In this document: positions 3,368 to 39,279 of the stretch, piece by piece
Numbering within the stretch: the first letter of the stretch is position 1
Layout of the letters: each line of letters begins with the position of its first letter
Source: Deltaproteobacteria bacterium PRO3
Lineage (GTDB): Bacteria > UBA10199 > DSSB01
Direction: 5' to 3'
DNA: 40,356 bases
Assembly: GCA_030263375.1 (NCBI GenBank)
Contig: SZOV01000018.1
Coordinates: 1-40,356 of the forward strand
Made by a program: the position numbers and the translations under genes
The notes under the pieces: generated by a model
The model's database searches: none
Told to the model about the DNA's origin: nothing
What the model saw: only the letters and a program-made list of their open reading frames with translations

Positions 3368-4867
3368 ATGGCCAAAGAATTGATCGTGAACGTGACTTCC
3401 AAAGAGAAGCGCGTCGCCTACCTCGAGAACAACGTCGTCTGCGAGGTCTATTACGAGCGGGCGAAGGAAGTCGCCTACGTCGGCAACATCTACAAAGGCA
3501 AGGTGCAACGGGTGCTCCCGGGCATGCAGGCCGCCTTCGTCGAAATCGGCATGGAGAAGGCCGCCTTCCTCTACGTCAGCGACGTCAACGAGGAGCTGGG
3601 CGACGTCGACGCCAGCGACGAGGAGAAGGAGACCAAGCCCCGCAAGCGTTGGCGCGACCGCCAGCAGATTCAGGACCTGCTGAGGCCCGGCCAGGACGTC
3701 CTGGTGCAGGTGGCGCGCGGCCCGATCAGCACCAAGGGCGCGCGCGTGACCAGCCATATCAGCCTGCCGGGGCGCTCGGTCGTCTACATGCCGACCTGGG
3801 ACAAGATCGGCACCTCGCGCCGCATCGGCAACGACGAAGAGCGCCGCCGGCTGCGCGACATCATCCGCAGCTACCGGCCGGAGGAGGGCGGCTTCATCGT
3901 CCGCACCGCCTCGGAGGGCCTAAGCGAGGAGATGATCAAGAGCGACATCGAATACCTCTCGACCACCTGGCGGGAGATCATCGAGAAGACCCAGCGCACC
4001 CCGGCGCCGGCGCTGATCCACACCGAGCTCGACATCGTCCTGCGCCTGCTGCGCGACCTGTTCAGCTTCGAGATCGAGCGCATCGTGATCGACGACCGGG
4101 AGGAGTTCGAGAGCATCCTGGCCTTCGTCAAGCGCTTCCTCCCGCACATCGAGCACAAGGTCGAGTTTTACCGGGGTAAGGACCCGATCTTCGATCACTA
4201 CGGCATCGAGACCGCGATCAACCGGGCCCTGGGCGCGAAGGGCTGGCTGAAAAGCGGCGGCTACCTGATCATTGATCAGACCGAAGCCTTGACCACCATC
4301 GACGTCAACACCGGGCGCTTCGTCGGACGCAGCAACCTCGAGGACACCATCCTCAAGACCAACCTCGAGGCGGTGCAGGAGATCGTCTACCAGCTGCGCA
4401 TCCGCAACCTGGGCGGCATCATCATCCTGGACTTCATCGACATGGAGCGCCGCAGCTCGCGCGAGCGGGTCTACTCGGCCCTGCGCGAGGCCCTGCGCCG
4501 CGACCGCTCCAAGACGACCCTAAGCCGTATCACCGAGCTGGGCTTGATCGAGATGACGCGCAAGCGCACTCACGAAAGCCTGGCGCGGGTGCTCTGCGAG
4601 AGCTGCGCGGTTTGCGAGGGCCGCGGCTACATCAAGAGCCGCACGACGGTCTGCTACGAGATCTTCCGCCAGATCCAGCGCGAGGCGCAGGGCATCGACG
4701 AGAGCAAGATCTTGGTGCAGGTGCATCCTTCGGTCTACGAGGTCTTGAACGACGAGGAGCGGGAAGGGCTGATCGAGCTGGAAAAGAAGATCTACAAAAA
4801 GATCGTGGTCGAGCCGGTGGCCAGCTTCAACCCCGAGCACTACGAGGTGAAGGCGATCCGCGGCTGA
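3368..4867 (+). CDS. rng: Ribonuclease G (RNase E/G family)
   Basis: 499 residues, the usual length of RNase G without the long C-terminal scaffold of RNase E. The N-terminus carries an S1 RNA-binding domain (about residues 35-125, VAYVGNIYKGKVQRVLPGMQAAFVEIG). The catalytic core has the conserved Mg-binding aspartates in TTIDVNTG (Asp312) and LDFIDM (Asp355/Asp358). A CX2C zinc link follows (CAVCEGRG, Cys413/Cys416). The enzyme cleaves single-stranded AU-rich RNA and matures the 16S rRNA 5' end. Its place between the radical SAM gene and rplU-rpmA-obgE is a conserved arrangement. A small gene converges on its 3' end only 4 bp away. Confidence 0.95.
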   Translation: MAKELIVNVTSKEKRVAYLENNVVCEVYYERAKEVAYVGNIYKGKVQRVLPGMQAAFVEIGMEKAAFLYVSDVNEELGDVDASDEEKETKPRKRWRDRQQIQDLLRPGQDVLVQVARGPISTKGARVTSHISLPGRSVVYMPTWDKIGTSRRIGNDEERRRLRDIIRSYRPEEGGFIVRTASEGLSEEMIKSDIEYLSTTWREIIEKTQRTPAPALIHTELDIVLRLLRDLFSFEIERIVIDDREEFESILAFVKRFLPHIEHKVEFYRGKDPIFDHYGIETAINRALGAKGWLKSGGYLIIDQTEALTTIDVNTGRFVGRSNLEDTILKTNLEAVQEIVYQLRIRNLGGIIILDFIDMERRSSRERVYSALREALRRDRSKTTLSRITELGLIEMTRKRTHESLARVLCESCAVCEGRGYIKSRTTVCYEIFRQIQREAQGIDESKILVQVHPSVYEVLNDEEREGLIELEKKIYKKIVVEPVASFNPEHYEVKAIRG

Positions 4868-4871
4868 GCGC

Positions 4872-4988
4872 CTAGCGGAACCACTTCGGCAGGGTCATGA
4901 GGACGATCGTCAGGACGAAGCCCATCAAGGACAGGGCGAAATAGACCTTGAAGTAGCGGTCGACGAAGCCTTTGAGATACCGGGTCAT
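4872..4988 (-). CDS. Small single-pass membrane protein (38 aa)
   Basis: Start ATG at 4988 on the minus strand is preceded by a good ribosome site (AGGAG, 7 nt upstream). The 38-residue product begins MTRYLKGFVDRYFKVYFA and has one hydrophobic segment (about residues 16-31) ending in TLPKWFR. The basic N-terminus predicts an inner-membrane peptide. A longer upstream extension is possible in frame, but the ribosome site supports the short form. It is convergent with rng. I recognise no family. Candidate roles are membrane-anchored regulator or toxin-like peptide, but nothing in the sequence decides this. Confidence 0.5.
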   Translation of the reverse strand: MTRYLKGFVDRYFKVYFALSLMGFVLTIVLMTLPKWFR

Positions 4989-5015
4989 AAGGGATCTCCT
5001 GTAAATTATCCCGTT

Positions 5016-5048
5016 TTGTCGGGGCGAACCTTGGGTTTGCCCCGACAA
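5016..5048. repeat. REP-like palindrome
   Basis: A 15-bp inverted repeat (5016-5030 with 5034-5048, 3-nt loop) contains one mismatch that is a G-U wobble in plus-strand RNA. Its core GGGGCGAAC...GTTTGCCCC is shared with the palindrome at 35522-35550, suggesting a dispersed family. It lies 28 bp upstream of the small membrane protein gene, so it would fall in that gene's leader RNA if transcription starts further upstream. Confidence 0.5.
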
Positions 5049-5310
5049 TGCCTCTGCTAAAAATAGATTCAATTTTCAGGCCAACTTTGTACAATATTGT
5101 CGGCACCGGCGCGTGACGGGGTCTTTTTTGCAAGTATTTGAAATAATATGATTTTTTAATTTATTTCACGGCGGGATTAGGCCCCGCCCTGCAAAAATTA
5201 AGGAAAATCGGGGGTCCAAGACTTAAGGATTGGAAATTTAGAAGGAATTTGATGTGGCCCCGAGTCTCCGGACGGCGCGTCAAGGGGAGGTGTTTTCTCG
5301 ATCCCTCTTC

Positions 5311-5337
5311 TTGACTCGCTGGGGAAAAACGGATAAC
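5311..5337 (+). promoter_or_regulatory. Possible rplU-rpmA promoter
   Basis: TTGACT at 5311-5316 resembles a -35 hexamer, with a weak -10 candidate GATAAC at 5332-5337 (15-bp spacer). The roughly 400-bp gap 4989-5391 must hold the rplU promoter because rng and rplU are separated by a minus-strand gene. The rest of the gap is AT-rich at 5050-5240, with a palindrome at 5016-5048 and no gene. The leader could hold an L21-type regulatory RNA, but I see no clear structure. Confidence 0.25.
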
Positions 5338-5391
5338 TCTTCGCGCCCTCGCATCTCTTTTGGGGCGCGGGCTTTGCGCAAAGGATTGGAT

Positions 5392-5706
5392 ATGAAGTAC
5401 GCGATCATCGAGACCGGCGGCAAGCAATACAAGGTCTCCGAAGGCGAAAAGGTCAAAATCGAAAAGGTCCCCGAGGGCGTGGTCGGTCAGTCGATCGAAT
5501 TCACCCGCGTGCTCCTGGTGGGCGGCGAGACCCCCGTGATCGGGACCCCGGTCGTCGAGACCGCGAAGGTCGCCGGCGAGATCGTCGCCCAGGCCAAGGA
5601 CAAGAAGGTCATGGTCTTCAAGAAGAAGCGCCGCAAGGGCTATTCGAAGCATTTCGGGCATCGGCAAGAATTCACCGAAGTCCTGATCAAACAAATTTCG
5701 GCTTAG
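5392..5706 (+). CDS. rplU: 50S ribosomal protein L21
   Basis: 104 residues, full length for L21. The start MKYAIIETGGKQYKV is the standard L21 N-terminus, and AAGGA upstream of ATG 5392 supports it; an open frame further upstream is leader. The C-terminal KKRRKGYSKHFGHRQ region is the conserved rRNA-binding basic stretch. It binds 23S rRNA in the large subunit and is co-transcribed with rpmA 12 bp downstream. Confidence 0.97.
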   Translation: MKYAIIETGGKQYKVSEGEKVKIEKVPEGVVGQSIEFTRVLLVGGETPVIGTPVVETAKVAGEIVAQAKDKKVMVFKKKRRKGYSKHFGHRQEFTEVLIKQISA

Positions 5707-5718
5707 AGGTTATTTGTC

Positions 5719-5976
5719 ATGGCACATAAGAAAGCAGGCGGCTCCAGCAAAAACGGACGCGACTCCAACGGGCAACGGCGCGGCGTGAAGGTCTACGGCG
5801 GCCAAAACATCCCCGCGGGCTCCATCCTCGTGCGGCAATGCGGCACCAAGATCTACCCCGGCAAGAACGTCGGCCAGGGCAAGGACTTCACCCTCTTCGC
5901 GAAGGTCAGCGGCGTGGTGAAGTACGAAGAGTTCGGCCGCGACAAGAAGCGGGTGAGCGTTTATCCGTCGGCTTGA
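5719..5976 (+). CDS. rpmA: 50S ribosomal protein L27
   Basis: 85 residues, full length. The N-terminus [16 protein letters not shown] is the classic L27 tail that reaches the peptidyl transferase centre. It has no Firmicutes-type cleavable extension. The body carries the conserved GVKVYGGQ and GNILVRQ-like (AGSILVRQ) motifs. An intrinsic terminator follows directly, so rplU-rpmA form one transcription unit and obgE is expressed separately or by read-through. Confidence 0.97.
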
Positions 5977-6000
5977 AGCCGAAGCGATTTTTAATCAAGA

Positions 6001-6032
6001 CCCCGCAGTGAAATCGCTGCGGGGTTTTTTTT
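6001..6032 (+). terminator. Intrinsic terminator after rpmA
   Basis: A 10-bp stem (CCCCGCAGTG with CGCTGCGGGG, one G-U pair) and an AAAT loop are followed by eight T residues. It lies 25 bp past the rpmA stop. Confidence 0.9.
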
Positions 6033-6125
6033 CGGCCTTTACCTCCAATTTCGATTTTCCCATGCCAATTTCGCCTCGTGCTCGCACGGGCATGGGTGGA
6101 TCGTAGGAGAGGTTAAGGAAATGAA

Positions 6126-7118
6126 ATGAAGTTCATCGACGAGGTCCACATCACAGTGCGCGGCGGCGGGGGCGGGGATGGCTGCGTCTCCTTCCGGCGG
6201 GAGAAGTACGTCCCGCGCGGTGGGCCCGACGGCGGCAACGGCGGGGACGGGGGGGCGGTGGTTTTTCAGGCCGACCCGGGATTGTTGACCCTGCTGGACT
6301 TCCGCTACCGCAAGATCTTCGAAGGCGAGCGCGGCGGCCACGGCCTGGGCGCCAACCGCTACGGCCGCACCGGGCGCGACGAGGTGGTACGGGTCCCGGT
6401 CGGCACGGTCGTCAAGGACCCGGAGAGCGGCGAGGTCTTGGCGGATCTCATCGAGCCCGGCCAGCGCTACCTGGCCGCCAAGGGCGGCCGCGGCGGCCGG
6501 GGCAACCTCTCTTACGTCTCCTCGGTCAACCGCGCCCCCCGCCAGTCCACGCCGGGCAAGGCGGGTGAGGAGCGCGAGCTGACCCTCGAGCTCAAGCTGT
6601 TGGCCGACGTCGGTCTGATCGGCCGGCCCAACGCGGGAAAGTCGACCCTGATCTCGCGCATCTCGGCGGCCAAGCCGAAGATCGCCGACTATCCCTTCAC
6701 GACCTTGACACCGCAGCTGGGCGTGGTGAAGGCGGGTCTAAAGAGCTTCACGGTCGCCGACATCCCCGGACTGATCGAGGGCGCCCATGAGGGCGCGGGC
6801 ATGGGCGTCAAGTTCCTGCGCCACATCGAGCGGACCCGGGTCTTCCTGCACCTGATCGACTTGAGCGACCCGGAATATCCGGACCCTTGGAAGTCCTATC
6901 AAATGATCGACAAGGAGCTCCTGGCCTACTCTCCCGAGTTCAAGAAGCGCCTGCGCTGGGTGGTCTTCACAAAAATCGATTTGCTCTCCGATCCGAAGGT
7001 ATTACAAAAGGCGGAGAATGCCTTCGCCGCGAAGAAATTGAAGACCTTCGCGCTCTCCGCGGTGACGGGGCAGGGCGTGGACAAGTTGCTCCGCGCCCTG
7101 GAGAAAGAGATTTTGTAG
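6126..7118 (+). CDS. obgE: Obg family GTPase (ribosome assembly)
   Basis: 330 residues. The glycine-rich Obg fold occupies about residues 1-159 (RGGGGGDGCVSFRREKYVPRGG...). The G domain follows: G1 GRPNAGKST (166-174), G3 DIPGLIEGAHEG, G4 TKID and G5 SAVTG. The protein ends soon after G5, so the variable C-terminal OCT domain is absent, as in many proteobacterial Obg proteins. It acts in late 50S assembly and stress control. The start ATG 6126 follows AAGGA at 6115-6119. proB begins 15 bp downstream, which suggests co-transcription. Confidence 0.96.
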   Translation: MKFIDEVHITVRGGGGGDGCVSFRREKYVPRGGPDGGNGGDGGAVVFQADPGLLTLLDFRYRKIFEGERGGHGLGANRYGRTGRDEVVRVPVGTVVKDPESGEVLADLIEPGQRYLAAKGGRGGRGNLSYVSSVNRAPRQSTPGKAGEERELTLELKLLADVGLIGRPNAGKSTLISRISAAKPKIADYPFTTLTPQLGVVKAGLKSFTVADIPGLIEGAHEGAGMGVKFLRHIERTRVFLHLIDLSDPEYPDPWKSYQMIDKELLAYSPEFKKRLRWVVFTKIDLLSDPKVLQKAENAFAAKKLKTFALSAVTGQGVDKLLRALEKEIL

Positions 7119-11082: not shown

Positions 11083-11697
11083 TTATACTTCCCTGCGAAA
11101 CAGGCTGTAGAGAAACTGCTGCAAGGTTCCTCCCGGCGTTCGGTGCGCTTCGCTTTCGCGGCGCAGGCATTCGAATTCCGACCCCAAGGTCTGCTGCAGG
11201 GTTTCCTGGCTGTAGCGTTGGACGGGAAGACCGCTGCATCTTTCCGGGCCCTCCAATGAGAAACTCGCGATCATGACGTAACCCGGATTGGAGAGGGAGT
11301 TTCGCAGCGTTTCAAGGTAAAGCTTCCGGTCCGCCGGATCCGTCAAAAAGTGGAAGACGGCCCGGTCATGCCAGAAGCGGTAGCGTTGCGGAGCGCGGAA
11401 GCGCGTGACGTCGGCTTCGACCCATTGAACGGCGTCCGCCGCGGCGCCCATCCTTTGCCTGGCCGTCTCCAGGGCCTTTTTCGAAATATCCAGGACGGTT
11501 AGGTTGCGATAGCCCAAGTCGTAAAGGACGGAGGCAAGCTTGGAGGCGCCTCCCCCCACGTCGATGATGGGGTCTTCCTTGCCCAAGCCGGCGGACTCGA
11601 TCATCGCCAGCGAGCGTGCGGGATTTTCTTGGTACCAGCTGACTTCTTCCGGCTTTTTCCGTTCGTAGACCGATTCCCAGTGGGCTTTGAGGTTCAT
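11083..11697 (-). CDS. Class I SAM-dependent methyltransferase
   Basis: 204 residues. It opens with HWESVYERKKPEEVSWYQE, characteristic of a family of small class I methyltransferases. Motif I is IIDVGGGASKLASVLYDLG (SAM binding), followed by LTVLDISKKALETAR (acidic motif II) and WVEADVTRF (motif III). HDRAVFHFLTD is the post-III region. The substrate is unknown; relatives are often annotated only as methyltransferase domain proteins or thiopurine-methyltransferase-like. It converges with the Cys/Met-rich gene (14-bp gap) and diverges from the ABC exporter. Confidence 0.85.
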   Translation of the reverse strand: MNLKAHWESVYERKKPEEVSWYQENPARSLAMIESAGLGKEDPIIDVGGGASKLASVLYDLGYRNLTVLDISKKALETARQRMGAAADAVQWVEADVTRFRAPQRYRFWHDRAVFHFLTDPADRKLYLETLRNSLSNPGYVMIASFSLEGPERCSGLPVQRYSQETLQQTLGSEFECLRRESEAHRTPGGTLQQFLYSLFRREV

Positions 11698-11886
11698 CTT
11701 CCGGCGAACCTATCCCGGAAGGGTTTTTTTTCCAACCCAACTTTTTCCTTTTCGGCCCAAAGCCGCGTGGGCCGGGTGAAGGTGTATGGAGCCGGATTTA
11801 CTCTGGCGGGAATAAAACCAGTTTTTCAACGGCCTCCTAGAGAATCCTTGTGCTCCGGAGACACTTGCGAAAAGATAAGCGGCATC

Positions 11887-13761
11887 TTGAGCCGAGACTC
11901 CAAAAAAATCGAAAAACTGCGCCGCCGAGCCAAGGAGCGGCGAGACGAAAAAACCCACCGCCAGGCGCGGCGCTACCAAAAGCACCTGCAAAGCCGGTGC
12001 TGGCGGCGCTTCCTGGGCTACCTGGGCGCCTATCGCGGCAGGATCGCGGGCATCGTCGCGCTGATCCTCTTGACCGCCCTCTTCGAGATCGTCCTTCCCC
12101 AAATCGTCCGCTTTGTCCTGGACGTGGTCGTGCCGCGCAAGGACTATCGCCTGCTCGGCTGGACCATCGCGGCGGGGGCCGGCTGCTACCTCCTGCACGC
12201 CGCGTTCCGCTACCTCGAGCAGCGCAGCGTGGTGGATTTTTCGCTGCGGCTCGTCGCCCACATTCGGCGCGACCTCTTCGCCTATCAACTCTCGCTGCCG
12301 CTGGATTACTTCGAGAAGAACGGGCCGGGCCGCCTGCTCTCGAAGCTCACCTACAGCACGACCATGATCAAGCTCCTGGTCGAGACCTTCGCCTACACCT
12401 GCCTGCGCACCCTAGTCCTGATCGCTTTGATCGTCATCGCCGCGGCCTTCATCGACCTCAAATTGACCCTGATCCTTCTCCTCTTGGCTCCCCTCGTCGC
12501 GATTTACATCCGCCGGCTCAATCGTTACATGAGCGAGGTCGCCTCTCAGCTGCAGACCAAGAACGACCAAATTCTGCAGGTCCTGCAGCGCGTCTACAGC
12601 TCGATTAGAATCTTCCAGGTTTTCGGCAACCCAGAAAAGGAAGTCCGCCGCCTCGACGAGCTGTTGCAGGGCGATTTGGCCTTCCGCCTCAAGCGGACCA
12701 TGGTCTACGCCGGCAACAACATCCTGATCCACTTGCTCACCGCGATCATTGTCCTGGGTGCGCTTTGGTACGGAGGGGCCCAGATCATCCAAGGCAAGCT
12801 CAGCCAGGGCGACGTCATGGCCTACGTCATCTATCTCAGCATGCTGCTTTACCCGGTGGCCGAGTTTGTGCGGGCCAGCGCCTTCCTGCAGGCCGGAAAG
12901 ATCGGCGTGCGCACCGTCTTTTCGGTCTACGAAAACCACGCGCCGCTGCCTGAGCCCGCCCATCCCGTCGAGGCCCGCGAGATTCGCGGCGACCTCGAGT
13001 TTCGCAACGTCTGGTTTTCCTATCCGGGCGGTGGGCCGGGCTTGAAGCACCTGAACTTGAAGGCCAAGGCCGGGCGACGGCTCCTCGTGGTCGGCGCCAG
13101 CGGGAGCGGGAAATCGACCCTGCTCAATCTCCTGCTGCGCCTCTATGACCCGGAGCGCGGCAGCGTCTGCGTCGACGGAATCCCCGTCCAGCGCTTCCGC
13201 CTGCGCGACCTGCGGAGCCTCTTCACCGTCGTCCTGCAGGAGGAGCTGCACGCGGAGGACAGCGTGATGGAGAACCTCTACCTCGCGGAGGAGGCCGATT
13301 GGGCGGCGAAGGTGGAAGGGACGCTCGGCTGGACGCGGCAATTGGGGATAGACCGCAAGCTCACGCGGCGCCACAAGAAGCTCGGCGAGGCGATGGGCAG
13401 CGGCGGGCTCGGCTTCTCGAGAGGGGAGCTGCAAAAGGTCGCGCTGCTGCGCGCGGCGCGGCGCCCGGCCCCGATCGTTCTGCTCGACGAGCCCACCGCC
13501 TCGATGGACCCCCGATCGGAACGCCAGGCCTTGGAGAAGATGGGGGAGTGGTTCCGCGGCAAGACGGTCCTCATGATCTCGCACCGCCCGGTCCCCGAAT
13601 TCCAGGCGGATTGGATCGCGGTGCTGCGCGAGGGCCGGATCGAGGCCCAGGGTAGCCACTTCTACCTGCTCAAGCACTCGGCGTATTATCGGGACCTGCT
13701 CCGGAGGCCAGGGCCTCCCGAAGCCAGCGCGCCAGACGGCGCAGCCGATGCAGGGGCCTGA
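11887..13761 (+). CDS. ABC exporter half-transporter, MsbA-like
   Basis: 624 residues from the TTG at 11887, chosen because an extended open frame runs upstream into the divergent methyltransferase. TTG 11848 and GTG 11776 are alternatives and ribosome sites are weak throughout. A Lys/Arg-rich head (about 45 residues) precedes a six-helix exporter membrane domain. The nucleotide-binding domain follows with Walker A GASGSGKST, Walker B IVLLDEPTASMD and H-loop MISHRP. The signature is degenerate: FSRGELQK replaces the usual LSGGQ, keeping Ser and one Gly. It probably acts as a homodimer exporting lipid or peptide. The last 92 bp overlap, tail to tail, the reverse transcriptase gene. Confidence 0.85.
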   Translation: MSRDSKKIEKLRRRAKERRDEKTHRQARRYQKHLQSRCWRRFLGYLGAYRGRIAGIVALILLTALFEIVLPQIVRFVLDVVVPRKDYRLLGWTIAAGAGCYLLHAAFRYLEQRSVVDFSLRLVAHIRRDLFAYQLSLPLDYFEKNGPGRLLSKLTYSTTMIKLLVETFAYTCLRTLVLIALIVIAAAFIDLKLTLILLLLAPLVAIYIRRLNRYMSEVASQLQTKNDQILQVLQRVYSSIRIFQVFGNPEKEVRRLDELLQGDLAFRLKRTMVYAGNNILIHLLTAIIVLGALWYGGAQIIQGKLSQGDVMAYVIYLSMLLYPVAEFVRASAFLQAGKIGVRTVFSVYENHAPLPEPAHPVEAREIRGDLEFRNVWFSYPGGGPGLKHLNLKAKAGRRLLVVGASGSGKSTLLNLLLRLYDPERGSVCVDGIPVQRFRLRDLRSLFTVVLQEELHAEDSVMENLYLAEEADWAAKVEGTLGWTRQLGIDRKLTRRHKKLGEAMGSGGLGFSRGELQKVALLRAARRPAPIVLLDEPTASMDPRSERQALEKMGEWFRGKTVLMISHRPVPEFQADWIAVLREGRIEAQGSHFYLLKHSAYYRDLLRRPGPPEASAPDGAADAGA

Positions 13762-15088
13762 GCAGCGGCGCCGGCTTCGGCCTTTCCTCGGCCTCCGAGA
13801 AATATCGCTCCCAATCCTGATAAGGCCCCAAGGGACGCCGGTGGCGGACGCGGTGGTAGGCGCCGGAGAAGCTGCGGTATTTTTCCTCGCGAAACCAGGC
13901 CTCCGGGACCTTTTGCCGGTTCTTCGGCGTGACCTCGCGGGTGACGCAGATCCGGATCCGGTCCTTCACGAAGCGGTCCAGCTCGCGCAAGTCCCGGTCG
14001 TCGTCGAGGAAGGGAAAACTCTTGATCCAGGCCAGCAGGTTGTCGGCGTGCCCCATCTCGATTTGTAGATCTTTCAGGATTCGGCGCAGCAGGGCCCGCC
14101 TCTCCTCGGGGCTGCGATTGGGCGAGTCACGGTATCTCTCGCGCGTGAGCCGCGACTTGATCCATTCGCGGTAGCGGCGGAGCGCCTTCTCGCCGACCCG
14201 GATGCGCCCGCGGTCGAACTTGTATCCCAGGTAATGGAAGGGCTTGTCGGCGGATTGCAGCAGCGTCTTGTCGGGAGAGAGCTTCAGGCCCCGCTCCGTC
14301 ACGCAGGCCTCGATTTCGCGCGCCGCGGCTTCGATCCGGCCCGCGTCGGGATCCATCGCCAGGATGTCGTCGCCGTAACGGAGATAGAAGATGCGCTCGC
14401 GGTACATCCGGTGGTCGAGGTCCTCGAGATAGAAATTCGCCAGCAGCGGGGTCAGCGGGGAGCCGGTCGGGACGCCGAGGTCGGGGACGACGAGCTCGCC
14501 GCGAAAGTAGCGCTTTTGCCTCAGGAAAGTCTTCAGCAGGCCGAGCAGCTCCGGCTCGCCCGGAAAGCGCGCGGCGAATTTCTCCAGCAGCAGGTCGTGG
14601 CGGATGTGCTCGGTGTAGCTCTGGATGTCCGTCTTGAAGAGGCGCAGACCGCAGCCGTGCCGCTTGAGGAAGCCCCGGGCCCGCTTCAGGGCGGCGCCCT
14701 GGTGAAAGCGGGGATCCCAGCGGTAGGAGTAGAGGTTGGGGGCGAAGCCCGCGTCCAACTCCGGCCACAGGACCAGGGCGAGGGCCTTCTGAATCACCTT
14801 GTCGCGGAGGCTGGAGAGGTAGACGTCGCGCATCTCCCCCTCGGCGTTCTTGGGGACTTGGCGGTGGAGCTGGGGGAGGAACTCGCGGTCGCCGTGGAGC
14901 AGGAACTGGCGGCAGTCCTCGAGATATTCTTCGAGGCGCTGCTCGAAGTCGCGGATCGAGAGGCCGTCGATGCCGGGAATGAATTTCCGCAGGGTCGTCC
15001 CGTCGGGGAGCACGAATTTTTCGATGCTTTGATAAAAAGACTCCAAGATGTGTTTCTTCCGGGTCAGTTTTTGAAACAGAGAAACCAT
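13670..15088 (-). CDS. Stand-alone group-II-like reverse transcriptase
   Basis: 472 residues. An RT0-like N-terminus (PGIDGLSIRDFEQRL) is followed by the fingers (RDKVIQKALALVL, NLYSYRW), motif A KTDIQSYTEHI with Asp154, motif B GVPTGSPLTPLLANFYL, motif C RYGDDILAM with catalytic Asp240/Asp241, motif D RGLKLSPDKTLL and motif E FHYLGYKF. A group-II-maturase-like thumb and a basic 130-residue tail complete it. No HNH endonuclease domain and no intron domain V were seen, so it is not an obvious mobile group II intron. The ATG at 15088 has no Shine-Dalgarno (pyrimidine-rich leader) and sits in a hairpin. TTG 15043 is a possible alternative start. Its neighbours suggest an ncRNA-templated RT (defence or domesticated), but its class is unassigned. 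Confidence 0.9.
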   Translation of the reverse strand: MVSLFQKLTRKKHILESFYQSIEKFVLPDGTTLRKFIPGIDGLSIRDFEQRLEEYLEDCRQFLLHGDREFLPQLHRQVPKNAEGEMRDVYLSSLRDKVIQKALALVLWPELDAGFAPNLYSYRWDPRFHQGAALKRARGFLKRHGCGLRLFKTDIQSYTEHIRHDLLLEKFAARFPGEPELLGLLKTFLRQKRYFRGELVVPDLGVPTGSPLTPLLANFYLEDLDHRMYRERIFYLRYGDDILAMDPDAGRIEAAAREIEACVTERGLKLSPDKTLLQSADKPFHYLGYKFDRGRIRVGEKALRRYREWIKSRLTRERYRDSPNRSPEERRALLRRILKDLQIEMGHADNLLAWIKSFPFLDDDRDLRELDRFVKDRIRICVTREVTPKNRQKVPEAWFREEKYRSFSGAYHRVRHRRPLGPYQDWERYFSEAEERPKPAPLLRPLHRLRRLARWLREALASGAGPDNTPSA

Positions 15089-15095
15089 CTTGGAG
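15034..15095 (-). terminator. Terminator-like hairpin enclosing the RT start codon
   Basis: On the RT strand, CTCCAAGATGGTTTCT (15095 down to 15080) pairs with AGAAAC-A-CATCTTGGAG (15057 down to 15041): 16 base pairs with a single bulged A and a 22-nt loop. TCTTTTT follows at once. The 5' arm contains the predicted RT initiation codon (15088-15086). It could terminate the upstream RNA, attenuate RT expression or block initiation. The alternative is a chance inverted repeat, but a 16-bp near-perfect match followed by a T tract is unlikely to be random. Confidence 0.55.
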
Positions 15096-15320
15096 GGGGA
15101 GCGCTACGCCGAAACTATCGCCCCAAGGGGCGACCTGTGAATCGTAAGACAAATGGGGCACCCCCGAAAGGGAGTGCAAATGGGGCCTTACAAATAATCC
15201 CCCCGATCGTCTCGGGGGTATCCACCCACGGCTTCAGACCCTTACCCGAGGGGAGCGCGAAGGCTCTATTTCTGAAGCGCCGGTGATCGCGGGTAAGAAG
15301 GCGCCTCCCCGGACGCCTTC
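15034..15320 (-). ncRNA. Candidate structured RNA upstream of the reverse transcriptase
   Basis: Read on the RT strand, the roughly 245-bp gap between the lipoprotein gene and RT is packed with hairpins: 15297-15320 (7-bp stem GAAGGCG/CGCCTTC), 15231-15278 (8-bp stem GCTTCAGA/TCTGAAGC around a 32-nt loop), 15200-15218 (7 bp, 5-nt loop), 15158-15177 (8 bp with one G-U pair) and 15118-15133 (TCGCCC/GGGCGA). The stem at 15158-15177 is fully paired only in minus-strand RNA; on the plus strand it has an A-C mismatch, favouring transcription with the RT. The 10-mer GCCCCATTTG occurs twice flanking that stem (15177-15186 and 15150-15159), and TAAG/CTTA closes around it. No promoter is recognised and ends are estimates; the 15297-15320 hairpin may instead belong to the lipoprotein transcript. 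Confidence 0.4.
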
Positions 15321-15333
15321 GGTTTCGGCAAAA

Positions 15334-15882
15334 TTATTGGATCTTCAGGCTGCCGTTGTAGATGTCCGTCTCGATGAAGGAGACCAGGCGGTCGTTGCCG
15401 CGGTCCTTTTCGGTGATGGCCACGCCTTTTTCGACCTTCATCCCCGGAGTGATGATCAGGTTTTTACTCTTCACCACGGACATCGGCAAAATCAAGGTAT
15501 ACATCTTCTTGGGATCGCTACCGCATTCCTCGCTGGGCGCGGCCAGATTGATGAAGAGCGTCTTCTTATAAGAATCCTTGGCCGAGGTGCCGGTGGTGCA
15601 GACCTTGTAGCCCGCCAGATTGTAGAAGCGGAAAGGCAACATCTCTTTGGTGCTGGCGGCGACGTTGGGCGTCTTGCGGCTGCCCTTGCCGTGCTCTTTG
15701 ATCGTGCCCGGCAACTCCGAGGGGTTTTGCGCCGTCGAGACCTTTTCGGGGGTCGAGGACTGCGGTTGGCTCGCGGTCACCGCGCTGTTGTTGTTGGTGG
15801 CGTTCGGGGCCCCGCCGCCGCTGCAGGCGGCCAGAGCAAGACCCAGGGACAAAGAGACACACAGGTTTTTCAGTGAGAACAT
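15334..15882 (-). CDS. Lipoprotein of unknown function
   Basis: 182 residues. Start ATG at 15882 is preceded by GGGGAG 8 nt upstream. A lipoprotein signal (MFSLKNLCVSLSLGLALAAC) gives lipidation at the Cys of LAAC. A low-complexity Ser/Thr/Asn/Gln linker follows, then a domain with two cysteines (YKVCTTG; SEECGSD) probably forming a disulfide and a beta-rich end. No family is recognised. It is the nearest same-strand gene upstream of the RT and its putative RNA, and could share a transcript with them. Confidence 0.7.
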   Translation of the reverse strand: MFSLKNLCVSLSLGLALAACSGGGAPNATNNNSAVTASQPQSSTPEKVSTAQNPSELPGTIKEHGKGSRKTPNVAASTKEMLPFRFYNLAGYKVCTTGTSAKDSYKKTLFINLAAPSEECGSDPKKMYTLILPMSVVKSKNLIITPGMKVEKGVAITEKDRGNDRLVSFIETDIYNGSLKIQ

Positions 15883-16210
15883 CGTGAAACTCCCCTTTAG
15901 ATAGGTGACCTCGGAACAAATAGATGCCGCCACGGATAGCGACAAGCACCCGGAATTATCAAGGGCCAAAGGGCCCTTTACCCCGAATTTCAACCCTGTG
16001 GGGCCTTTTTCGGCACTTGGGGGCTCCAAAGTTTCGTATTAAAAGGAGATGAAGATTCCGTGGCTGGGGCAAGAATCGGTGTGTCCTGAAAATCCGTTAT
16101 TTTTCATGGCGTTCAGTTGTTCGATCTTCGAGAAGGAGAATTCTGTGCAGATATTTTCTTGGAAGCCCCTTGTCGCGCGGCTAAACTAGGCCCATCTCGG
16201 AGGGGTGTTC
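15883..16210. other. Divergent intergenic region, no gene seen
   Basis: This stretch separates the divergent lipoprotein and lipase genes and should hold both promoters. It contains a 12-bp palindrome AAAGGGCCCTTT at 15968-15979. A GC stem ending in GGGGCCTTTTT (about 16000-16010) could act as a plus-strand terminator. A 46-codon plus frame at 16049-16189 has its Shine-Dalgarno abutting the ATG and is not convincing as a gene. Confidence 0.4.
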
Positions 16211-37361: not shown

Positions 37362-37560
37362 CTCTTCTTCTATCTTTCTAAACGCGGGCTGGAAGCCCTT
37401 GAGAGTATTTTCGGTCCTTTCCCGATAACGTTTCGCGATTTCCCCGTCACGCTATCTTCACGCAACCTCCGGCAAAATTCCCCGATATTGTACACAGGTT
37501 ATTACCTCTGTCGGGGAGGGGCCTGTCCCGTGCCGGGCTATTAACGATTTGGAGGCTTTC

Positions 37561-39279
<1,719 letters not shown>

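What the first reader, a model, noticed from the sequence alone, without database searches (positions are those of the whole stretch)
13670..15320. Stand-alone reverse transcriptase with a compact multi-hairpin RNA immediately upstream
The RT has complete catalytic motifs (Asp154, YGDD at 238-241), a group-II-like thumb, no endonuclease domain and no visible intron domain V. Directly upstream on the same strand, about 245 bp without a gene is filled with at least four stable hairpins. One contains a G-U pair that forms only in RT-strand RNA, and two copies of GCCCCATTTG flank one stem. Systems with an RT plus an upstream templating or priming ncRNA include retrons, DRT2/DRT9 defence RTs and diversity-generating retroelements. 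The motifs seen (GVPTGSPLTP, YGDD, group-II-type RT0) do not clearly place it in those classes, so this may be an undescribed ncRNA-RT pair. The function is inference.
Basis: partly seen in the sequence, partly recalled or inferred. Interest (0 to 1): 0.8.

Follow-up and report, generated by a model that had tools for sequence, protein, structure and literature searches.

The report
Reverse transcriptase with conserved structured RNA
A bacterial reverse transcriptase is paired with a folded RNA encoded directly in front of it, and the pair occurs twice in each of two related species, always beside a membrane-exporter gene; it looks like an undescribed relative of the anti-phage enzymes that copy their own RNA into DNA.

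Summary
The RT (13670-15088, minus strand) is an intact 472-aa RVT_1 protein, and the gap in front of it encodes a 224-nt RNA-like element (15107-15330). Its best profile is the defence-RT group UG26, level with or above generic RT; control group II RTs score the opposite way.

The genome carries a second copy (43% identical RT), and a sister species carries orthologues of both. All four leaders fold into one architecture: closing stem P1, hairpin P2, forked P3, hairpins P4-P6. A likely pseudoknot joins J2/3 to the P3b hexaloop, and a hairpin (P7) covers or encloses the RT start codon. Covariation is strong: between orthologous leaders, 14 of 17 pairs changed on both sides stay paired (4.3 expected). 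A model of the P3 fork gives one weak extra hit, directly upstream of a distant tandem RT.

All four RTs lie convergent to an MsbA-like ABC exporter found nowhere else in the family. No group II intron, retron motif or DGR repeat was found.

Best reading: a UG26-like RT and cis-encoded ncRNA form a ribonucleoprotein that makes cDNA, as in DRT2/9/10, with the exporter as candidate partner. The RNA structure is well supported; templating, defence and the exporter's role are inferred.

The parts
13670..15088 (-). Reverse transcriptase RT-A, 472 aa, UG26-like, catalytic motifs intact
15107..15330 (-). Structured RNA element (proposed ncRNA), 224 nt, P1-P6
   Evidence: Same fold in four loci, covariation; coordinates
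15322..15329 (-). P1 closing stem, 5' strand GCCGAAAC (3' strand GTTTCGGC at 15108-15115)
15297..15320 (-). P2 hairpin
   Evidence: five double changes against the orthologue
15290..15296 (-). J2/3 strand TTACCCG, complementary to the P3b hexaloop (proposed pseudoknot)
15228..15281 (-). P3 forked stem with hairpins 3a (15253-15266) and 3b (15239-15252); conserved basal G.U pair; hexaloop CGGGTA at 15243-15248
15200..15218 (-). P4 hairpin
15142..15193 (-). P5 hairpin with an internal loop made of the two GCCCCATTTG copies
15117..15134 (-). P6 hairpin GTCGC..GGCGA, alike in all four loci
15041..15096 (-). P7 hairpin with the RT start codon in its 5' strand
   Evidence: -26.5 kcal/mol, z = -5.7; AA:TT in A is GG:CC in B
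11629..13761 (+). MsbA-like half-size ABC exporter ORF (homology from about 11902), convergent with the RT, 3' ends overlapping by 92 bp
15334..16029 (-). Predicted lipoprotein ORF directly upstream; accompanies copy A only (53% identical in G014)
15333..15362 (-). Weak promoter-like site (TCTACA-18-AATAAT) just upstream of the RNA 5' end
   Evidence: 9 of 12 consensus matches; consensus match only

Best explanation
The locus is a ribonucleoprotein system: a UG26-like reverse transcriptase and a cis-encoded 224-240-nt ncRNA (P1-P6 with a J2/3:P3b pseudoknot). The RT is proposed to bind the folded RNA and copy a short unpaired stretch of it into cDNA, as the RTs of DRT2, DRT9 and DRT10 do, most likely for phage defence. 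The adjacent, co-duplicated MsbA-like ABC exporter is the candidate membrane partner or effector, in the place that the SLATT protein holds in DRT10. The hairpin at the RT start codon (P7) probably limits RT translation, perhaps with feedback by the RT. Shown here: conserved RNA architecture with covariation, its constant place upstream of the RT, the RT's nearest profile, and RT-exporter co-occurrence. Inferred: RNA binding, templating, cDNA, defence, the exporter's role, translational control.
For: Four leaders fold independently into the same layout. Compensatory changes exceed permutations: 14 of 17 double changes kept in A (mean 4.3, none of 20,000 reach 14), 4 of 4 in B (P = 0.0026). A P3-fork model built from the four loci has its top hit on the contig of a distant RT directly upstream of that RT; covariation score 0.494 against 0.202 shuffled. 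Pseudoknot partners change on both sides between A, B and G039. The best RT profile is UG26 in RT-A, RT-B and G039, unlike group II controls. The exporter family is found only at the RT loci in seven family genomes. Class 2 UG RTs use cis-encoded ncRNA templates (PMC13174585); DRT2, DRT9 and DRT10 ncRNAs are of similar size and complexity (PMC12596737, PMC12489045, PMC12632851).
Against: Only two species and four loci, plus one weak distant hit that would not be significant genome-wide. No evidence of transcription, RNA binding or cDNA. No template region identified: no A-B-A' pattern is shared by A and B. UG26 itself has not been characterised in the papers I could search, and 155 bits may mean a neighbour of UG26 rather than a member. 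The neighbourhood is housekeeping genes, not a defence island. The exporter is convergent, not in the RT's operon, and the exporter beside the G039 RT is not its orthologue.
Confidence: 0.5

Rival explanations
1. The leader is only a cis-acting regulatory element: the RT or another factor binds its own 5' UTR to control translation, and the RT copies some other RNA or none.
For: The start codon lies in or under a strong conserved hairpin, P7, and the leader is contiguous with the RT coding sequence. Group II RTs are known to control their own translation from a similar site (own knowledge).
Against: Six helices with a closing stem and a pseudoknot over 224-240 nt are more than a translational switch needs, and P1-P6 close before P7. 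The nearest characterised RT groups with such leaders use them as templates (PMC13174585).
Confidence: 0.25
2. A degenerate group II intron or a domesticated group II RT with intron RNA remnants.
For: RVT_1 core and 146 bits to the group II RT model. The G039 relative lies just downstream of an ORF-less group II intron.
Against: No group II RNA in the window at either threshold; score far below the cut-off of 300; group II controls show the opposite profile order; the tree puts the module outside a 99/98 group II clade.
Confidence: 0.05
3. A diversity-generating retroelement or a retron.
For: Both are RTs with a nearby template RNA.
Against: No second copy of the leader in the genome; DGR RTs form a separate 99/99 clade; GVPTGSPLTP in place of the DGR-type IPIGNLTSQ; the retron motifs NAxxH and VTG are absent by direct reading; retron models far below cut-off.
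Confidence: 0.04
4. RT and ncRNA are a pair, but the ABC exporter is only a passenger that happened to be duplicated with them.
For: All four loci may stem from one duplication; the exporter is convergent; the ABC exporter beside the G039 RT is not the orthologue, and ABC exporters are common.
Against: In seven family genomes neither gene is found without the other at the thresholds used; the RT-exporter pairing is kept in both copies while other neighbours differ; another RT of this kind in the class also abuts an ABC exporter.
Confidence: 0.4

Closest known systems
UG26 (unknown-group RT, PADLOC RT_UG26)
   Same: Best profile for RT-A, RT-B and the G039 RT, nearly full length
   Different: Scores of 155-192 bits only level with or moderately above the generic RT profile; no characterised UG26 system or ncRNA was found in the papers I could search
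DRT10 (UG17 RT + SLATT + 137-nt ncRNA; PMC12632851)
   Same: RT, cis-encoded multi-helix ncRNA and a membrane-protein neighbour; UG17 is the second-best UG profile for the window RT
   Different: MsbA-like ABC exporter instead of SLATT; the ncRNA lies directly upstream of the RT and is larger; no A-B-A' template pattern shared by copies A and B
DRT2 (PMC12596737)
   Same: ncRNA upstream of the RT with several stem-loops and a pseudoknot of five Watson-Crick pairs
   Different: Much lower profile score (61 bits); different helix layout; no sign of a rolling template
DRT9 (UG28; PMC12489045, PMC12483538)
   Same: ncRNA immediately upstream of the RT; 188 nt with six stem-loops
   Different: 69 bits; no poly-U template seen in the leaders
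Group II intron RT/maturase
   Same: RT fold and motifs; 146 bits to the group II RT model
   Different: No intron RNA, score below the family cut-off, separate clade

Membership tests
UG/DRT defence RT, UG26 in particular | RT sequence falls in the UG26 group | tested here: inconclusive
   Best PADLOC profile (155 bits) but level with generic RT (153.5); group II controls differ clearly. No UG26 reference sequences were available for a tree
UG/DRT class 2 | Structured ncRNA encoded in cis next to the RT | tested here: met
   Conserved fold with covariation at four loci
UG/DRT class 2 | ncRNA templates (repetitive) cDNA | not testable with these tools
   Needs RIP-seq and cDNA sequencing
UG/DRT class 2 | Phage defence | not testable with these tools
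   Context here is housekeeping genes, no other defence-system hit of note
DRT10 | SLATT partner protein | tested here: not met
   The neighbour is an ABC exporter; no SLATT match among the neighbouring ORFs scanned
Group II intron | Intron RNA domains around the ORF | tested here: not met
   Rfam, both thresholds
Group II intron | RT at or above the curated cut-off of the group II RT model | tested here: not met
   146 bits against 300
Diversity-generating retroelement | Template repeat with a variable-repeat copy elsewhere | tested here: not met
   No second copy of the leader in the genome
Retron | RT motifs NAxxH and VTG; retron RT model score | tested here: not met
   Motifs absent by direct reading of the translation; best retron model 37.8 bits against a cut-off of 235

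The most novel reading that the evidence does not exclude
A new tripartite system in which a UG26-like RT makes cDNA from a new family of pseudoknotted ncRNA, and the product gates, or is moved by, a dedicated MsbA-like ABC exporter, giving reverse transcription a signalling or transport role at the membrane.
Probability: 0.15. Interest if true: 0.9.

Novelty: new variant of a known kind. Interest (0 to 1): 0.62.

Why it matters
The class 2 UG reverse transcriptases studied so far use a cis-encoded RNA to make an unusual DNA, and each studied group has brought a new mechanism. This gives an unstudied branch (UG26-like) a defined RNA with mapped helices and a likely pseudoknot, predicted boundaries for RIP-seq and cDNA tests, and a new kind of membrane neighbour. 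Two diverged copies per genome are a natural test of which parts the RT needs.

Tried and rejected
1. A 212-nt element between the tandem RT and the exporter in G039 (L059:7048-7259) looked to me by eye like the same architecture. The P3-fork model did not support it and placed its hit upstream of the RT instead, so I dropped it.

2. Full-length model R1 over 46 phylum genomes: apart from the four training loci, the best extra hit (G026, 22 bits) lies at the junction of a recG-like gene and the next gene, without an RT; treated as chance.

3. Relatives in viral contigs, phages, plasmids and genome contigs: none closer than about 30% identity except the sister species itself.

4. AlphaFold on the three-sequence alignment gave mean pLDDT 48 and was not used.

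5. DGR template/variable repeat: no second copy of the leader.

6. A DRT10-like A-B-A' template: the GCCCCATTTG repeat of copy A is not kept exactly in its orthologue, and short CCAA repeats in the J5/6 segment of copy B have no counterpart in A; a lead only.

7. A Cupriavidus plasmid hit with two RT pieces proved to be a group II-type RT and fragments.

Full report
What is there. The RT ORF at 13670-15088 (minus) is 472 aa and intact, with KTDI (D154), GVPTGSPLTP and YGDD at 238-241. RVT_1 is its only Pfam domain. In front of it lie a gene-free gap (15089-15333) and then a predicted lipoprotein ORF on the same strand. The gap encodes a 224-nt element at 15107-15330 that folds at -111.7 kcal/mol, z = -5.2 (coordinates). 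Rfam has no credible match for it.

Relatives. The window's genome carries a second RT of this kind (G000:C16, 43% identity). A species of the same genus, G014, carries orthologues of both. Copy B is complete on contig C28. Copy A appears as an N-terminal half at the end of C28 and a C-terminal half at the end of C95; the N-half lies beside the same lipoprotein, and the C-half beside the same exporter, as in the window. That the two halves are one gene split by the assembly is my reading. G014's contig is public record JAIOPF010000003.1, a MAG titled Deltaproteobacteria. No other close relative was found in 46 genomes of the phylum, in GTDB contigs, viral contigs, plasmids or phages. The third genome of the genus (80% complete) has no match, which says little.

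The RNA. The four leaders were folded one by one and gave the same layout: closing stem P1; hairpin P2; a forked stem P3 carrying two short hairpins, 3a and 3b; hairpins P4, P5 and P6; then the 3' strand of P1. Lengths are 224, 240, 224 and 223 nt; z-scores are -5.2, -6.8, -3.3 and -2.9. Copies A and B are about 50% identical in the leader. To test pairing without a structure-guided alignment, I projected the fold of one leader onto the other through a plain sequence alignment. Between the A orthologues (62% identity), 17 pairs changed on both sides and 14 stayed canonical; permuting the changed letters gave a mean of 4.3 and never reached 14 in 20,000 trials. Between the B orthologues (74% identity) it was 4 of 4 (P = 0.0026).

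Distant test. A covariance model of the P3 fork, built from the four loci only, was run over the 12.6-kb contig of the nearest more distant RT (G039, 27% identity). Its top hit (20.3 bits, E = 0.004; next best 8.1 bits) is at L059:4507-4558, directly upstream of that RT, inside a 140-nt element with an 11-bp closing stem. The E-value is for that contig; over the whole genome the hit would not stand alone, and the phylum scan did not report it. With it, the fork shows 9 pairs with double changes and a covariation score of 0.494 against 0.202 shuffled (0 of 500) and 0.08-0.16 slid; the basal G.U pair is kept in five of five. That alignment was fitted to the model, so these figures lean towards it.

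Pseudoknot. The strand between P2 and P3 complements the 3b hexaloop: UACCC:GGGUA in A, UGUCC:GGACA in B, GGACU:GGUCC in G039. Shuffling the strand gives P = 0.01 (a1), 0.09 (a2), 0.01 (b1), 0.004 (b2) and 0.04 (G039) for Watson-Crick pairing; allowing G-U, G039 is 0.17. I noticed this pairing after seeing the sequences. Two of the five pairs change on both sides between A and B, as a true helix would show.

Start-codon hairpin. P7 (15041-15096) has the RT start codon in its 5' strand (CCAAGATGG/CATCTTGG; -26.5 kcal/mol, z = -5.7). Copy B has CCGGGATGG with CATCCCGG or TATCCCGG in the same place, again over the ATG; in the A orthologue the same stem encloses the start codon.

What the RT is. 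PADLOC's UG26 profile is best for RT-A (155 bits), RT-B (171) and the G039 RT (192), level with or above the generic RT profile (153-159). Three control group II RTs from plasmids score 259-277 for the generic profile and 89-113 for UG26. NCBIfam's group II model gives 146 bits against a cut-off of 300. In a tree the module RTs form a 100/100 clade outside group II (99/98) and DGR (99/99); the places of the long-branched G039, G011 and Bdellovibrionales RTs are unresolved. I call it UG26-like, not UG26.

The exporter. At all four loci a half-size MsbA-like ABC exporter lies convergent to the RT. In seven family genomes it is found at E <= 1e-60 only at those loci; the next exporters in G012 and G039 score around 1e-21. 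Its signature motif reads FSRGE or YSRGE in place of the usual LSGGQ, while Walker A and B look normal (direct reading). In G039 a different ABC exporter follows the RT. That fits a functional link but could be chance, since ABC exporters are common.

How it most likely works. Class 2 UG RTs polymerise cDNA templated by cis-encoded ncRNA (PMC13174585). [quoted passage not shown] The leader here resembles these in place, size and complexity. I infer that RT and leader form a ribonucleoprotein that writes a short cDNA, with the exporter as candidate partner and P7 limiting RT output. The template is unknown; the unpaired J2/3 and J5/6 segments, conserved within each copy, are candidates, though J2/3 is partly in the pseudoknot.

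Limits. The evidence is two species, four loci and one weak distant hit. There are no transcript data, and defence was not tested; the window's other genes are largely housekeeping. The main rival, at 25%, is that the leader acts only on the RT's own mRNA. The exporter-as-passenger rival (40%) is compatible with the RT-ncRNA pairing and concerns only that one part.

Noticed in passing
L059 (G039:C24) 4474-7035: An 854-aa ORF with two RT domains; the first reads YSDN where YxDD is expected and the second is degenerate, and an ABC exporter follows. A tandem RT with a damaged first active site is odd and recalls the two-RT DRT3 systems.
   Followed up: partly
L059 3762-4350: An ORF-less group II intron (Rfam RF02001, RF01998 and RF00029) lies directly upstream of the tandem RT's leader.
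   Followed up: no
L059 7048-7259: A 212-nt element between the tandem RT and the exporter, closed by a 10-bp stem and containing a perfect 30-bp hairpin; not supported by the P3 model.
   Followed up: partly
L028, L029 (G014) and L027 (G000): In G014 copies A and B lie head to head within about 4 kb, while in G000 they are on separate contigs. The same ABCF-type gene sits near copy A in G014 and near copy B in G000, so the region has been rearranged.
   Followed up: partly
L029 2294-4075: The G014 copy-A exporter lacks about 33 residues right after Walker A compared with the window's copy; deletion or assembly error not resolved.
   Followed up: no
window 11629-13761 (+): The exporter has FSRGE (YSRGE in copy B) where ABC proteins usually have LSGGQ; it may be altered in ATP use.
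   Followed up: no
L088 1-1128 (G011:C88): Another RT in the class whose best profile is UG26 (122 against 104 bits for generic RT), cut by the contig end, so its leader is unseen.
   Followed up: partly
L031 3779-6957: A Bdellovibrionales RT with a YLRYGDD motif is followed by a large predicted membrane protein; its relation to this group is unresolved.
   Followed up: no
window 37549-39279 (+): Protein resembling the cell-cell cohesion protein MtsC (165 bits, below the cut-off of 350).
   Followed up: no
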